Source: Methylomonas sp. EFPC3 (lineage in GTDB: Bacteria > Pseudomonadota > Gammaproteobacteria > Methylococcales > Methylomonadaceae). Taken from it: 64,000 bases of DNA. Each line of letters starts with the position of its first letter. The stretch's first letter is position 1. Of this stretch, positions 3,699-61,048 are shown piece by piece. A model generated the notes under the pieces. The model was not told where the DNA came from, did no database searches, and saw only the letters and a program-made list of their open reading frames with translations. The position numbers and the translations under genes were made by a program. The stretch covers positions 3,778,372-3,842,371 of the forward strand of contig NZ_CP116398.1 in assembly GCF_029643245.1 (NCBI RefSeq). Direction: 5' to 3'.

Positions 3699-5888
3699 TC
3701 AGTCTTCGGCCGCGGTGCGGACAGGTTCGTAATCGCGCGGGGTTTCTGCCGGGCGCGGACTCCGTTCCGCATGGTCGCTGTCGGCGCTACGGCTTGGGTT
3801 GCGGAATTCTCCGCGGTCGGCAGGCGCGGGTGGAGCGGATTCGGCGGTGTGTTGCTCGCCGTTTGCGCCGATACCATTCGGCTCGCTACGTTTTTCGGCG
3901 CCGTTGCGCGGTCCTCGGCGGCGACTACGGCTGCGGCGGCTGCGCTCCCGATCCGGCGTGCCTGAGGCTTTTTTCGCAGCGTTGTCTAGTCCCGAGTCTA
4001 GCTCGCCGGTCGCTGCCGGTCTGGCTTCGTCGCTTAGGTTTGCGACGGTGTCCTGGCCGGCTGTTGCCGCTGGAGCCGGGCGGCGATTGCCGTTACGGCG
4101 ATTGTTGTTGCGGCCGGCGCCACGTTCGCCGCGCTCACCACGGTCGCGGCGATTGTTGCGGCCGGGTTTGGCTTTATCTTCACCACTTTTTTCGGCGGCT
4201 TCGGCGTTTTCGACGGTTTTACCGGCGCCGATCAGGCGTTGCCAGAAACGCTGGATCAGGCTGGCCGAAGTTTTCTTACTTTGAACCGGGGCCGGTGAGT
4301 CAGGCAGAAATTCCTTGATTGCGGCTTTTTCGGTTTTCGGACCCAGTTGTTTGGCGAACTCCGGAACCGTGATGTCTTCTTCCTTGATCTGCAAATGGCT
4401 GGCCTTCTCTTCGCTGTCGCCGGTGGCTTTGATGCGCTCGATGTCGTAAGCCGGCGTTTCCAGGTGTTTGCTCGGCAACACGATGATGCCGACTTGCAGC
4501 CGGGACTCGATTTCCTGAATCGAGGCGCGTTTTTCGTTGAGCAGGAAGGTGGCGCAATCGATCGGCAAGTGAGCGATGACACGCTCGGTGCCTTTTTTCA
4601 TCGCTTCTTCTTCGATCAAGCGCAGTACGGCCAGCGTGACCGATTCGACGTTACGGATCGTGCCTTGGCCTTTGCAGCGGGGGCAGGTCAACTGGGTCGA
4701 GTCGCCCAAAGACGGCCGCAAGCGTTGGCGCGACATTTCCATCAAGCCGAAGCGGGAGATGCGGCCGGTCTGGATGCGGGCGCGGTCGATTTTCAGCGCG
4801 TCGCGCAGCCGGTTTTCCACCTCGCGCTGGTTTTTGTTGGACATCATGTCGATGAAGTCGATCACGAACAGGCCGCCCAAGTCGCGCAAACGCAGTTGGC
4901 GGGCGATTTCGTCGGCGGCTTCCAGGTTGGTATTGAGCGCGGTTTCTTCGATGTCGCTGCCTTTGGTGGCGCGGGCCGAGTTGATGTCGATCGAGGTCAA
5001 CGCTTCGGTGTGGTCGATGACGATCGAGCCGCCGGATGGCAGTGAAACTTCGCGTTTGTAGGCCATCTCGATCTGGGTTTCGATCTGGTAGCGGCTGAAT
5101 AGCGGCACGCTATCCTGGTACAGTTTGGCCTTGTGCAGGTTGTGCGGCATCACTTGTTTCAGGAAGTTATGCACCAGCTTGTAGGCGCCTTCCTGGTCGA
5201 TCAGGATTTCGTCGATGTCGCCGCGCAAATGATCGCGTAGCGCGCGGATGATGACGTTGCTTTCCTGGAAAATCAGGAATGGTGCCGTTTGTTCCTGGCT
5301 GGAGCGGTCTATCGCCTCCCATAGTTGCATCAGGTAGTTCAAATCCCACTGCAATTCTTCGACGTTTTTGTCGGAACCGGCGGTGCGGATGATCAGGCCC
5401 ATGCTGTCCGGGATTTCCAGCGCGGCCATGGTTTCGCGCAATTCGCTGCGGTTTTCGCCTTCGATGCGGCGGGAGATGCCGCCGGCTTTGGGGTTGTTCG
5501 GCATCAGCACCAGATAGGTGCCGGCCAGACTGATGTAGGTCGTTAGCGCCGCGCCTTTGTTGCCGCGTTCTTCTTTTTCGATTTGAACGACGATTTCCTG
5601 GCCTTCGCGGATATTGCTTTTGCTGGAGCTTTTACCTTCCTGACCGTCGCCGGTGCGGTATTCCGGGGCGATTTCCTTGAACGGCAGAAAGCCGTGTTTT
5701 TCGGCGCCGTAGTTGACGAAGGCGGCTTCGAGACTGGGTTCTACCCGGGTGATGATGCCTTTGTAAATATTGGATTTTTTTTGTTCTTTCGATGGAACTT
5801 CGATGTCGAAATCGTAAAGTTTCTGGCCATCTACCAATGCCACCCGCAGCTCTTCGGGCTGCGTGGCGTTGATAAGCATTCTTTTCAT
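3699..5888 (-). CDS. rne: Ribonuclease E, short scaffold form
   Basis: This endoribonuclease starts mRNA decay and processes rRNA and tRNA precursors. The N-terminal half has the S1 domain (about 38-120), the DNase I-like site with [12 protein letters not shown] and DFIDMM (metal-binding aspartates) and the zinc-link CPRCKGQG. After about residue 520 the chain is low in complexity and rich in Arg, Asn and Gly ([11 protein letters not shown]), resembling an RNA-binding arm. At 729 residues it is much shorter than the 1,061-residue E. coli enzyme, so the degradosome scaffold is reduced. The Zn-link and arm make RNase E more likely than RNase G. It is divergent from rluC, as in E. coli. Confidence 0.93.
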
Positions 5889-8968: not shown

Positions 8969-9078
8969 GGTTACTGTGTCGGTCCTCTCGCAACGATACG
9001 CTGTAAACCCCGCCAGGTCCGGAAGGAAGCAACGGTAGCAGCGGATTCGTGTGCCGGGATGCGGCTGGCGCAGTAGCC
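8969..9078 (+). ncRNA. ffs: 4.5S signal recognition particle RNA
   Basis: The apical Ffh-binding domain is nearly identical to the bacterial consensus: CCAGGTCCGGAAGGAAGCA at 9013-9031, flanked by CTCTCGCAACG and GTGTGCCGGGAT. The ends pair as GGTTACTGTG with CGCAGTAGCC, giving a single hairpin of about 110 nucleotides. It lies just upstream of dnaX, a common gammaproteobacterial position. Confidence 0.95.
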
Positions 9079-54298: not shown

Positions 54299-54522
54299 TT
54301 TAAAAATGTGTCGGTTGGGTTTGCCCTGGGGCATAAAAGCTCTTTAGAGCGTAACCCAACATTTCGAAGCCTGCAGGTCGGAATAAGCCCAGCGTTTCCG
54401 GCACTAGGCTTCAGCTCTTTAACAATTTGGTGTCGCTATCGCGACGGGGTGGTGCTTGGACGTATACTAATAAAGCTGCGCCGATACGGGGTGGCATGTT
54501 GTTATTTTTCGGGAGTATCGAA
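54299..54522. other. Repeat-rich intergenic segment after hupG
   Basis: The segment contains GTTGGGT (54314-54320) paired with ACCCAAC (54354-54360), enclosing the hairpin GCTCTTTAGAGC (54339-54350), and at 54431-54449 TGTCGCTATCGCGACGGGG, which matches the outer part of the repeats at 54825 and 56503. GGGAG at 54511-54515 serves the next gene. Confidence 0.55.
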
Positions 54523-54747
54523 ATGAATCTCGCACAACTGGAAGCCGAAATATTTTCCTTACCGCTTCAAGACCGGGCCGCTTTGGCGCAGCGTTTGTTA
54601 TTGAGCCTTGAGGAAGTTTCTGAGGCTGATTTTGAGCGGTTATGGGGCGAGGAGTCGGCGCGGCGCGTGGCTGATTTCGACTCGGGCAAAGTGCAATCTA
54701 TTCCCGGCAAAGTAGTTGCCGAGAAAGCCCGTGCCTTGTTGATTTGA
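54523..54747 (+). CDS. Addiction-module antitoxin-like protein, no toxin beside it
   Basis: The 74-residue protein (LAQLEAEIFSLPLQDRAALA ... RLLLSLEE) matches the unstable antitoxin family whose members usually precede a RelE/ParE toxin. Here no toxin gene follows; a hairpin repeat starts 9 bases after the stop. It resembles in kind the antitoxin at 60546. It lies in the block that separates hupG from hupH. Confidence 0.75.
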   Translation: MNLAQLEAEIFSLPLQDRAALAQRLLLSLEEVSEADFERLWGEESARRVADFDSGKVQSIPGKVVAEKARALLI

Positions 54748-54756
54748 ATTTTTCTA

Positions 54757-54780
54757 GTTCCCAACCTCCAGGTTGGGAAC
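54757..54780. repeat. Perfect 10-bp hairpin, REP-like
   Basis: GTTCCCAACC (54757-54766) and GGTTGGGAAC (54771-54780) flank TCCA. Palindromes of this GTTCCCA...TGGGAAC type recur in many genomes. It starts 9 bases after the antitoxin stop after a short T-run, so it might also terminate that transcript. Confidence 0.65.
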
Positions 54781-54824
54781 CGTTGTCTTGGAAGCTCTAG
54801 CTTCAGCGTTTTGTTGAGTAAATG

Positions 54825-54959
54825 TGTCGCTGTCGCGACGGGTGTTTTAAAGTCGGGTCTCGGCCCGACGGCCGAAATACTTTCGCTACGAAAACCATCC
54901 CTGGTTTTCGCCCTTCGGGCCAGCCTATCGGCTGTTCAAATTTGCTCCAGGCAAATTTG
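54825..54959 (+). repeat. Inverted repeat copy A with serial hairpins
   Basis: The core folds as four consecutive hairpins: CGAAAACCA-TCCC-TGGTTTTCG (54889-54910), CCCTTCGGG (54911-54919), AGCCTATCGGCT (54922-54933) and CAAATTTGC-TCCAG-GCAAATTTG (54937-54959). Copy B at 56395-56503 lies in the opposite direction; both point inward to the gene at 55259. An outer TGTCGCTGTCGCGACGGG (54825-54842) is also shared. Confidence 0.85.
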
Positions 54960-55258
54960 TCGCTTTTGGCGAGAGTTTTCGGAAGTGCCATCTCTAGCCC
55001 TCCGAAAACGAGCGGCATGCCCGAAAAAGCGGGGCAGGCTCTCCCTGCCGCTCCCCTGCGGGCTATTCTCACCAAATACCCACGGGGCACAAGAGCTGCG
55101 ATGCTCGGGGCGGAATAACGGGAATAGCCCACTCCAACGGTTATTGTGTGTAGCAAAGGTTTTTTGGTAGGCTGGGTTGGAACGACAGTGTAAACCCAGC
55201 TTTGGCCTATATTGTTGGTTTTCGCTTTGCTCTCCCCAGCCTAAGAACTCAAAAGGAA

Positions 55259-56221
55259 ATGGAATCAGTTATTCAATTTCTGGTAATCCTAGCAACATTG
55301 GCCGGCATGATTGTTCTGGCTTTATTGGCGAAATCAACGGACGAAGCTAATACTAACGCTAGTGTCGTCTATGGTGTTCTTGCCATATCGGTCGTCGCTG
55401 CATTGGTGCTGTTATTTCGTTGGGATAAGAAACGTATTCAAGACGAAGAACTCAAATTGCGGCAACGTGTAGACGCAAGAATCAAGGCAGCGTTGAATTA
55501 CAAGCACCCCGTCGAATTCTATGCAAAACCGACTCAATTTGTATTCTTGGCATTTTTGTTGATCTTGAGCTCGGGTGCGATCTATTTTGGCGCTCATTTA
55601 CTTACTAATGTACCAGTAACAAATTGGTTCGCCGGTTCAAGTTTTCTGTCTGGCGGCATACTATTTAGTATCGCATCAATTGCATCGGGAAAACGATTGA
55701 TCCGCCGTCCGGTTATTCGCCTGGATATACGCGGCCTGGCGCATTTTCGGTTTGGCTTCATTCCTTGGAGTGATGTGAATGAAATTTTTCTCCAGACTGT
55801 AACAATAAAAGGAAATGAGGCGTTCTTTCTGAAAATTGGAACGATGAATAAAGCGTTTTATCAGACTCGGCTTCCTCGTTGGTTACGAGTATTTCATAAA
55901 ATCGAACCAGGTGGACTGTCACTGGCTTTGCCACTTTCAAAACAGGACGCTCATTTAGTTGAAGGAGTTGCAAAAGGTTATGCGGACTATGCCGATGCGC
56001 CAACTTTCGAAAAAAACGTTTCAAGAAAATTAGTCGAGGAACTATCAGCACTACAAACACCGCAACAAAGAATGCAGCGATTGCAAGAACTCATGGTGGA
56101 AAGCTCCGAGGAGTTTATAAAACGGCGTCAGGCTATTTCCAGAGCTTATGTTGTTTCCGCCATGATCTTGATATTAGGCGTTGTCGGCATTTGCGTTGGA
56201 GCGTGGATCACAAGCAAATGA
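55259..56221 (+). CDS. Unrecognised membrane protein within the repeat block
   Basis: The 320-residue protein has two N-terminal helices (about 5-22 and 38-54), a second pair (about 92-112 and 120-140), a soluble beta-rich part (about 145-235) with IPWSDVNEIFLQTV, a charged helical stretch and a final membrane helix (about 298-317). The layout recalls small proteins with a PH-like domain between membrane helices, but no family is named. Its base composition is clearly more AT-rich than the hydrogenase genes, and it is flanked by inverted repeats, so recent acquisition is likely. The ATG at 55259 follows AAAGGA. Confidence 0.7.
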   Translation: MESVIQFLVILATLAGMIVLALLAKSTDEANTNASVVYGVLAISVVAALVLLFRWDKKRIQDEELKLRQRVDARIKAALNYKHPVEFYAKPTQFVFLAFLLILSSGAIYFGAHLLTNVPVTNWFAGSSFLSGGILFSIASIASGKRLIRRPVIRLDIRGLAHFRFGFIPWSDVNEIFLQTVTIKGNEAFFLKIGTMNKAFYQTRLPRWLRVFHKIEPGGLSLALPLSKQDAHLVEGVAKGYADYADAPTFEKNVSRKLVEELSALQTPQQRMQRLQELMVESSEEFIKRRQAISRAYVVSAMILILGVVGICVGAWITSK

Positions 56222-56581
56222 GCCTGGGTCAATGGTGGGCACGAAAAGCATGTGCCCACCCTACAATTTTCGAGATTCGTTTTTAATTTCGGGATGGTTT
56301 TGAGTCCGTTGCCGACCGTCGACAAAAGCCAGGAGCGCAGGAAATAAGAGCGTCCGGGGGGGCTCTTCTTTGAATAATTTCTTTGGGCTACGCACAAATT
56401 CGTCTGGAACGAATTTGAACAGCCGATAGGCTGGCCCGAAGGGCGAAAAACAGGGATGTTTTTCGTGAAACCGACATCTAAAACCATCTTCGCGATAGCG
56501 ACTCCAAATAAACCAATAACTCAATGCCGGATGCATTTCACTTATCCAGCCTACAACTTTAATTCAACAAACCACCGAAAC
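56222..56581. other. Intergenic region with repeat copy B
   Basis: No gene is seen in these 360 bases. They contain copy B (56395-56503) and, next to it, sequence rich in short palindromes. The hupH start follows at 56582 without a strong ribosome binding site (CACCGAAAC), and any promoter restarting the interrupted operon should lie here. Confidence 0.5.
56395..56503 (-). repeat. Inverted repeat copy B with serial hairpins
   Basis: On the minus strand it gives the same series as copy A: CGAAAAACA-TCCC-TGTTTTTCG (56465-56444), the GCCCTTCGGGC and AGCCTATCGGCT hairpins unchanged, and CAAATTCGT-TCCAG-ACGAATTTG (56417-56395). Three base pairs differ from copy A, each on both sides of its stem. 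Confidence 0.85.
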
Positions 56582-60545: not shown

Positions 60546-60758
60546 ATGTCGACGACTCAAGAAATTTATCAACAACTTAGTCAACTGATGCCACTAGAAA
60601 AACTGCAACTGGCGGAAATGTTACTGGCAGATCTGGATACGCCCGATCCCCAAATCGATGCGGTTTGGCGCGATGAAGCCCAAAAAAGATGGCAAGCGTA
60701 TAAAGACGGCAAAATGTCTAGCGTCAGCTATGACTCGATCATGCAAAAATATAAATGA
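60546..60758 (+). CDS. Addiction-module antitoxin
   Basis: The 70-residue protein (LSQLMPLEKLQLAEMLLADL ... IDAVWRDEAQKRWQAY) belongs to the addiction-module component family that neutralises ParE/RelE toxins. It overlaps the following toxin gene by 4 bases (ATGA). The ATG at 60546 follows TGGAGC. The pair lies between hypB and hypC. Confidence 0.88.
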   Translation: MSTTQEIYQQLSQLMPLEKLQLAEMLLADLDTPDPQIDAVWRDEAQKRWQAYKDGKMSSVSYDSIMQKYK

Positions 60759-61048
60759 ACGTCGAGTTTCTCGCCGCCGCCGAAACTGAACTGGACCAGG
60801 CATATCAGTGGTACGAGCAGCAACAATCCGGATTGGGAAAACAATATTTGTCTGAATTCGATGCAGCGATTCGCCGTATCACAGCCTTCCCTAAATCATA
60901 CGTTTTAATCGATACCGAAATTCGCCGCTGCCTGATAAAACGTTTTCCTTATGGTGTTTTGTACGGCATCGACCGTCAATCGATTATCGTTGTTGCCGTA
61001 GCTCATTTGCATCGAAAACCGGATTATTGGCTAGCACGGATTGGCTAA
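60755..61048 (+). CDS. ParE/RelE-superfamily toxin
   Basis: The 97-residue protein has the family pattern: FLAAAETELDQAYQWYEQQ, GLGKQYLSEFDAAIRRI, RRCLIKRFPYGVLYGI and VVAVAHLHRKPDYW. ParE members poison gyrase, RelE members cut mRNA on ribosomes; which applies cannot be told. It ends 21 bases before hypC, so transcripts of the hyp genes probably run through it. Confidence 0.88.
   Translation: MNVEFLAAAETELDQAYQWYEQQQSGLGKQYLSEFDAAIRRITAFPKSYVLIDTEIRRCLIKRFPYGVLYGIDRQSIIVVAVAHLHRKPDYWLARIG

What the first reader, a model, noticed from the sequence alone, without database searches (positions are those of the whole stretch)
54825..56503. Inward-facing structured repeats with compensatory base changes around an unknown gene
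Copies A and B share four consecutive hairpins. Stem 1 is CGAAAACCA/TGGTTTTCG in A and CGAAAAACA/TGTTTTTCG in B; the last stem is CAAATTTGC/GCAAATTTG in A and CAAATTCGT/ACGAATTTG in B, with loops TCCC and TCCAG unchanged. Three base pairs changed on both sides. Inverted, structure-conserving copies flanking an AT-rich unrecognised gene could be the ends of a mobile unit, or a family of structured RNAs or REP elements. A third partial copy lies at 54431.
Basis: seen in the sequence. Interest (0 to 1): 0.75.

Follow-up and report, generated by a model that had tools for sequence, protein, structure and literature searches.

The report
Folded-DNA arms bracketing swappable genes
The two repeats are the arms of one member of a large family of gene cassettes in methane-eating bacteria: two mirror-image DNA arms, predicted to fold intricately, around an interchangeable gene, probably moved by a single-strand transposase supplied from elsewhere in the genome.

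Summary
The 73-nt repeats lie inside longer arms (about 250 nt in plain form) whose predicted fold has ten helices, two of them pseudoknots. In 94 plain arms 95.6% of paired cells form standard pairs and 44 of 76 pairs show double changes. In three Methylomonas genomes neighbouring arms are 40 inward, 4 outward, 11 same-way; about 1.4, 1.3 and 2.7 expected. An inward pair brackets a short spacer, unrelated genes, or a RAYT-like Y1 transposase gene. Arms occur in 30 of 369 genomes of the class. At one site seven genomes carry an inward pair with no shared cargo ORF and nine are uninterrupted. At the window's own site, homology to the relative G012 stops 9 and 13 nt from the two ends of the gene. 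RAYT genes lie within 1 kb of an arm in 10 of 25 cases, 0.49 expected. G·T cells are no commoner than A·C cells, so the fold looks kept as DNA. Best reading: TIRtron-like, non-autonomous units whose cargo is exchanged between conserved arms. Movement was not observed.

The parts
54430..54447 (+). Lone terminal hairpin (third partial copy), left outer edge of the region; inverted partner of the outer end of arm B
   Evidence: D2, I3; R1 match 54431-54558, E 9e-6
54824..55122 (+). Arm A, inward-facing; hybrid form with one 70-nt module joining the P4 site to the P7 site
   Evidence: (82 bits)
54890..54959 (+).
55123..55249 (+). Inner left margin, part of the block 54753-55249 that is 93.6% identical to G012; homology to G012 stops at its right end
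55259..56221 (+). Cargo gene, 320 aa from the ATG, helix-rich and probably membrane-bound by its sequence (my reading); no Pfam family above cut-off; homologues in 3 of 40 other genomes
56235..56314 (+). Inner right margin, 97.5% identical to G012 in one block; begins with a GTGGGCAC/GTGCCCAC palindrome
56306..56504 (-). Arm B, inward-facing, shortened and partly decayed
56395..56464 (-). 70-nt module in arm B

Best explanation
The feature is a composite cargo unit. Two inward-facing arms (about 250 nt in the plain form), ending in a G-TGTCGC(N4)GCGAC hairpin and predicted to fold as single-stranded DNA into helices and two pseudoknots, act as terminal structures. Inferred: a RAYT-like Y1 (HUH) transposase, which some units carry between their own arms, recognises the folded ends on single-stranded DNA and moves units in trans. 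Once a unit sits at a site, its central gene is exchanged by recombination between the conserved arms and inner palindromes of different units or of incoming DNA. Shown: the family, the conserved pairing, the inward-pair unit, changing cargo at fixed sites, sites with and without a unit, and proximity of part of the RAYT genes. Inferred: the mobilising enzyme, the single-stranded route, gain rather than loss at the polymorphic site (not polarised), and the exchange mechanism.
For: Structure: 94 plain arms, 76 pairs, 95.6% paired (83.7 shuffled), 797 double-change cells (235 shuffled), 0/500; both pseudoknots covary; an independent RNAalifold fold keeps 62 pairs, 34 with double changes. DNA rather than RNA: G-T 48, A-C 149 of 7,135 cells; in well-kept pairs 34 and 66. 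Unit: 40 inward, 4 outward, 11 same-way neighbours in three genomes; inward pairs also in distant genera. Cargo turnover: site T, 7 genomes with no ORF of 100 aa or more shared between genomes; site H, 13 genomes, only G000 and G013 share cargo apart from RAYT and a toxin-like ORF; G000 against G012 differ at 55250-56234. Site T: an inward pair in each of six fetched relatives and G000, no arm in nine relatives with joined flanks. Same gene elsewhere: in G008 (60% identity) between two inward arms at another place of the hydrogenase cluster. RAYT: 10 of 25 within 1 kb, null mean 0.49, maximum 4 in 2,000; RAYT ORFs inside inward pairs in several loci. No TSD, as expected of HUH enzymes.
Against: 15 of the 25 RAYT genes are not within 1 kb of an arm. 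The two arms of a unit are hardly more alike (0.827) than arms of other units in the same genome (0.806; 11 units), so joint recent transposition is not visible. Empty sites come from relatives only 69-81% identical there, so no exact junction can be read, and loss of a unit is not excluded. No identical recent copies at two sites were seen in what I fetched. A plain Methylomonas-type arm finds only 4 short hits in 72,556 plasmid records and none in 50,697 phage records, and an exact inner pattern finds nothing in the viral collection. The structure was drawn from these same sequences, which favours it over slid controls.
Confidence: 0.6

Rival explanations
1. Immobile recombination anchors. 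The arms are old repeats that spread by some extinct process; genes between them are now exchanged only by homologous recombination after DNA uptake, as in the minimal mobile elements of Neisseria.
For: Cargo switch inside conserved margins between G000 and G012; same site, different cargo; 15 of 25 RAYT genes not near arms; GTGGGCA palindromes denser inside units (0.74/kb) than in flanks (0.27/kb).
Against: Sites with and without a unit within the genus, though loss is possible; inward geometry far above chance; RAYT enrichment near arms; the same cargo gene with an inward pair at another position in G008.
Confidence: 0.27
2. A structured RNA family (3' UTR element, attenuator or large non-coding RNA) encoded near gene ends.
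For: Strong conserved pairing with pseudoknots; T-rich outer flanks.
Against: G-T cells are fewer than A-C cells (48 and 149; 34 and 66 in well-kept pairs; read on the other strand this is about 2:1 for G-U, weak for an RNA), and transversion-type double changes (480) exceed transition-type (313); in the 70-nt module alone some helices do show G-U cells. No Rfam family at gathering score in the window except SRP RNA elsewhere, two sub-threshold hits in five loci, one of them inside an arm. Inward pairing around genes is not explained.
Confidence: 0.07
3. Classical terminal-inverted-repeat transposon or MITE of a DDE transposase, or integron cassettes.
For: Inverted ends, presence and absence at a site.
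Against: No target-site duplication above shuffles (60 units, 51 of 200 shuffles as high); among the 25 of 65 Pfam families shown, IS110- and rve-type transposase families match one cargo ORF each, Y1_Tnp 6 of 87; strict attC scan 0 of 64 units.
Confidence: 0.06

Closest known systems
TIRtrons / TIRYTs (Di Nocera et al. 2013, PMC3733652; section 16 and search passages read)
   Same: RAYT-like gene between long inverted repeats unrelated to GTAG REPs; such repeats also dispersed in the genome, many as dimers
   Different: Arms here are about 250 nt with two pseudoknots and in most units scanned bracket ORFs that are not transposases; the word 'cargo' does not occur in that paper's main text; its GGGGWSAS motif is absent from 94 of 94 arms
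REP / REPIN / REPtron systems of TnpA-REP (PMC8266576: abstract, outline and first part of the discussion read; PMC3116915: listing only)
   Same: Hairpins near Y1 HUH enzymes; inverted dimers; no TSD here
   Different: No GTAG tag at most ends (5 of 160 have one nearby); about tenfold longer; genes inside
Minimal mobile elements of Neisseria (search listing; concept recalled)
   Same: Different genes between the same conserved neighbours in related genomes
   Different: Here the borders include a dispersed, folded repeat family and inner palindromes, not only core genes
Integron gene cassettes (recalled; single-stranded attC mentioned in PMC8266576)
   Same: Small gene units, folded single-stranded recombination sites
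   Different: No attC in 64 units under a strict scan; pairs of inward arms; a Y1 enzyme rather than a tyrosine recombinase nearby

Membership tests
TIRtron (RAYT-like gene between long TIRs) | Y1/HUH transposase gene between inverted repeats | tested here: met
   Met for RAYT-bearing units only, e.g. L025, L036, L146, with an arm on both sides and conserved H-x-H and DYxHxNP motifs. Not met by the window unit itself: its gene is no transposase.
TIRtron (RAYT-like gene between long TIRs) | The same repeats form a dispersed family, often dimers | tested here: met
   37, 51 and 55 arm matches in three genomes; 40 inward neighbours
TIRtron (RAYT-like gene between long TIRs) | GGGGWSAS motif (described for some TIRs only) | tested here: not met
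   0 of 94 arms
GTAG REP / REPtron | GTAG tetranucleotide next to the hairpin | tested here: not met
   Present near 5 of 160 arm starts; base -1 is G in 99% of 137 arm starts, T-rich before it
CGTC REP (PMC3733652) | Stem of 8-9 bp with terminal CGTC and no transposase association | tested here: not met
   Terminal stem is 5 bp and RAYT genes are enriched near arms
IS200/IS605 | Encodes TnpA between its subterminal hairpins, no TSD | tested here: inconclusive
   No TSD; Y1_Tnp in only 6 of 87 cargo ORFs at E 0.001
Integron cassette | attC site | tested here: not met
   0 of 64 units under a strict scan that may miss degenerate sites
DDE transposon / MITE | Target-site duplication | tested here: not met
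   60 units, mean best direct repeat 1.48 against 1.35 shuffled, 51 of 200 shuffles as high
Rfam RNA family | Match at gathering score | tested here: not met
   Only SRP RNA in the window, elsewhere at 8977-9073
TIRtron / REPtron | Transposase binds and cuts the folded end | not testable with these tools
   Needs biochemistry

The most novel reading that the evidence does not exclude
A gene-cassette system independent of integrons: pseudoknotted single-stranded-DNA arms serve as portable docking ends for single orphan genes, with a Y1 transposase acting in trans, and arm-to-arm exchange reloads fixed genomic sites with new genes across methanotrophs and other gammaproteobacteria.
Probability: 0.35. 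Interest if true: 0.88.

Novelty: new variant of a known kind. Interest (0 to 1): 0.72.

Why it matters
It would explain how small orphan genes turn over at fixed places in these genomes, extend RAYT/TIR biology from tiny palindromes to cargo-carrying units, and give a rare case of a large DNA fold with two pseudoknots kept by compensatory change. It is directly testable with one purified enzyme and synthetic single strands.

Tried and rejected
RNA reading: Rfam at gathering score and at E up to 1 in five loci (two sub-threshold hits: RsmW in L009 at 4456-4539, inside an arm, E 0.65; Thr_leader in L029, E 0.82). Integron reading: strict attC scan, 0 of 64, although some inner sequences looked attC-like by eye. 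TSD search: none. Defence-gene enrichment: PADLOC hits at E 1e-5 in 6 of 30 sampled cargo ORFs and 2 of 30 neighbouring control ORFs (sampled from 47 such pairs, where control ORFs average 394 aa and cargo 276 aa; at least one control, in the window, is an unlikely reading frame), not a clear difference, so no enrichment is claimed; the 73 PADLOC families at E 0.001 have no control. Structure of the cargo protein: mean pLDDT 46.6 from 3 sequences, too poor to search. Concerted evolution of the two arms of a unit: not seen. Repeats in L180 are long duplications, not clean transpositions. Literature: (Methylomonas or methanotroph with repeat or transposase terms) 0 papers; (RAYT with REPIN) 18 papers, of which one was searched and read in part (PMC3733652) and one in part (PMC8266576); (TIRtron) 1 paper; (REPtron with cargo) 0; (four of five cargo, palindrome and cassette-exchange terms) 0; one search gave 9 papers that did not bear on this by their listing. 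The library holds open-licence papers only.

Rows dropped: one search used 25 of the 36 RAYT matches (11 fragments left out, one of them, G018 4510957-4511106, inside a unit). A4 used 94 of the 102 plain arms (eight dropped by hand); these were themselves picked by regular expressions from 235 arms, 93 of which had a non-plain 5' part, so its percentages describe plain arms. A6 used 72 modules: 71 of the 73 references listed (left out: L012, same sequence as window copy A, and L048), plus window copy A. Unit lists from fetched loci (80 units) are biased because loci were chosen for having repeats; distant pairs fetched were picked by eye as inward pairs. The orientation test and the RAYT test are genome-wide in three genomes.

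Full report
WHAT IS THERE. The window lies in G000, a 4.44-Mb genome. The region sits between hydrogenase maturation genes (gene names here are my own reading, not from a family search).

THE ARM. Aligning copies from relatives showed that the 70-nt core is only a module inside a longer repeat. The plain arm is nearly constant in length: of 142 arms with a plain 5' part, 100 fall in the 240-259-nt class. Its outer end is a hairpin, TGTCGC-N4-GCGAC, preceded by G in 99% of 137 ends. I wrote down a structure of ten helices by eye and counted it on 94 arms (the tool counts 11): 95.6% of 7,135 cells pair (83.7% in shuffles), 44 of 76 pairs have a double change (28.8), 797 cells have one (235), covariation 0.299 (0.095), none of 500 shuffles as high; slid controls fall to 41-44% paired. 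The shuffles do not keep relatedness and the structure was drawn from these sequences, but RNAalifold, on its own, found 62 pairs, 34 with double changes. Two helices are pseudoknots: a hairpin loop pairing just downstream (P3; U-A in 67 rows, G-C in 23 at one pair) and the loop of the long P4 hairpin pairing with a downstream strand (P5; G-C 60, U-A 33 at one pair). One pair of P5 fails in 46 of 94 rows. On 98 sequences of the 5' part alone 97.2% of cells pair and 82 cells have double changes (25 in shuffles, 0/500), but the counts of pairs and of pair types are not above shuffles (203 and 235 of 500).

DNA OR RNA. If selection acted on RNA, G-U pairs should be the common intermediate. Over the 76 pairs there are 48 G-T and 149 A-C cells; in well-kept pairs 34 and 66; transversion-type double changes (480) exceed transition-type (313). 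On the opposite strand the ratio would be about 2:1 for G-U, weak for a structured RNA. This favours folding as single-stranded or cruciform DNA, or copying of one hairpin strand from the other; it does not prove it. In the 70-nt module, helix 2 does vary mostly through G-U (14 cells).

THE MODULE. The 70-nt module sits at two exact places in the arm, the P4 loop (54 of 85 copies) or the P7 strand (15 of 85); 4 of 85, including window arm A, join the left side of the first to the right side of the second, as a deletion between two modules would give; 12 of 85 fit no class fully. Its own pairing covaries.

THE UNIT. With the 62-position model R1, genome-wide searches found 37, 51 and 55 matches in G000, G018 and G023. 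Neighbours within 3.5 kb are 40 inward, 4 outward and 11 same-way; about 1.4, 1.3 and 2.7 expected. So the inward pair is the unit. Outer spans of the inward neighbours run from 497 to 2,743 bp. Units of 900 bp and more in fetched loci hold one to three ORFs of 75 aa or more, L017 excepted under the strict core limits (some ORFs may be spurious); shorter units were not scanned and leave little room. R1 matched 11 of 11 genus genomes searched, 3 to 66 times each. Class-wide, 30 of 369 genomes and 27 of 272 genera match at E 1e-4, the window's own included. Of 14 inward pairs that I picked from other families, ten are compact (580-695 bp, read) and four span 1.2-2.0 kb. An exact 41-base pattern taken from Methylomonas arms matched 78 stretches of genome contigs, all titled as methanotrophs.

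CARGO. 87 cargo ORFs of 90 aa or more were scanned. Pfam matched 65 families, 25 shown: Y1_Tnp in 6 ORFs, the others shown in one or two. Of 20 scanned one by one, 8 match nothing at E 0.01; others are KAP NTPase, SIR2-like, T5orf172, Mrr/M78, HNH, DUF4357 or Y1_Tnp. PADLOC matched 6 of 30 sampled cargo ORFs and 2 of 30 controls, so a defence role is suggested for single genes, not shown for the class. The window gene has no family above cut-off; homologues occur in 3 of 40 other genomes: G013 at the same site, G008 between two inward arms elsewhere in the hydrogenase cluster, and G017, with one stop inside and no detected arm, at the edge of a contig.

CARGO DIFFERS AT FIXED SITES. R1 finds one inward pair in each of the six and no arm in the nine. 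In the seven occupied genomes no cargo ORF of 100 aa or more has a homologue in another (BLASTP E 1e-4); G011 has only one such ORF, of 104 aa. Site H (the window's site): of 13 genomes examined, inward pairs were seen by BLAST in 10 (one side weak in G017). G000 and G013 share cargo; G007, G014, G016 and G017 carry a RAYT there; a toxin-like ORF is shared by G008, G016 and G017; the other cargos have no match in each other. Between G000 and G012, homology of 93.6% runs to 55249 and resumes at 56235 with 97.5%; the gene is 55259-56221. So the gene differs while arm A and both inner margins are kept. Arm B aligns only in part (84% over 89 nt), and G012 has about 690 nt more outside arm A.

THE LIKELY ENZYME. 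RAYT ORFs occur inside inward pairs in several loci (biased loci). Unbiased: 10 of 25 RAYT genes in three genomes lie within 1 kb of an arm, null mean 0.49, maximum 4 in 2,000 draws. The terminal hairpin is rarely free: of 30 exact hairpin matches in G000, 25 lie in model-detected arms. No TSD was found. These facts fit a Y1 enzyme working on folded single strands in trans, but 15 of 25 RAYT genes stand apart, and no excision was seen.

WHAT IT RESEMBLES. The nearest published idea found is the TIRtron (PMC3733652, section 16 read): RAYT-like genes between long inverted repeats that also form dispersed families; 'cargo' does not occur in its text. GTAG tags are absent from most ends and the GGGGWSAS motif from all 94 arms. 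The exchange of genes between fixed neighbours recalls Neisseria minimal mobile elements (listing only). I file it as a new variant of the TIRtron kind, not as a proven member.

LIMITS. Empty sites are from diverged relatives and gain was not told from loss; arms of one unit are not clearly more alike than others; one Methylomonas arm and one exact pattern found almost nothing in plasmid, phage and viral collections, so how cargo enters is open.

Noticed in passing
window 54890-54959 and 85 module copies: The 70-nt module occupies one of two exact positions in the arm in 69 of 85 copies; window arm A, L012, L030 and L070 are hybrids that look like deletions between two modules.
   Followed up: yes
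cores of 64 units, e.g. window 56234-56260: GTGGGCA/TGCCCAC palindromes lie near cargo margins: 65 in the unit cores (0.74/kb) against 38 in flanks (0.27/kb), in 25 of 64 units; they may be exchange borders.
   Followed up: partly
L009, L020, L029, L151 arms: Other hairpin modules with changed stems but the same ATCCNT loop followed by CCCTTCGGG recur at several places in arms (read by eye).
   Followed up: no
L011, L015, L042, L067, L165: Arms sit beside the same short flank in five loci, another apparent hot spot.
   Followed up: no
window 54524-54747 and 60755-61048: Small ORFs that look like an addiction-module component and a ParE-like toxin (my reading, no family search) near the unit and between hydrogenase genes.
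   Followed up: no
L113 4618-5304, L119 1321-1866: RAYT genes in the hydrogenase gap bracketed only by short terminal hairpins (read by eye); no arm match there.
   Followed up: partly
L180 (G288): Arm-containing stretches of 1.2-1.5 kb repeated in the same orientation at 99% identity.
   Followed up: no
NC_014633.1:230370-230423 (Ilyobacter) and three Pasteurella records of the plasmid collection: Short 86-90% matches to the middle of the 5' half of an arm outside the expected hosts.
   Followed up: no
window 8977-9073: Bacterial small SRP RNA.
   Followed up: no
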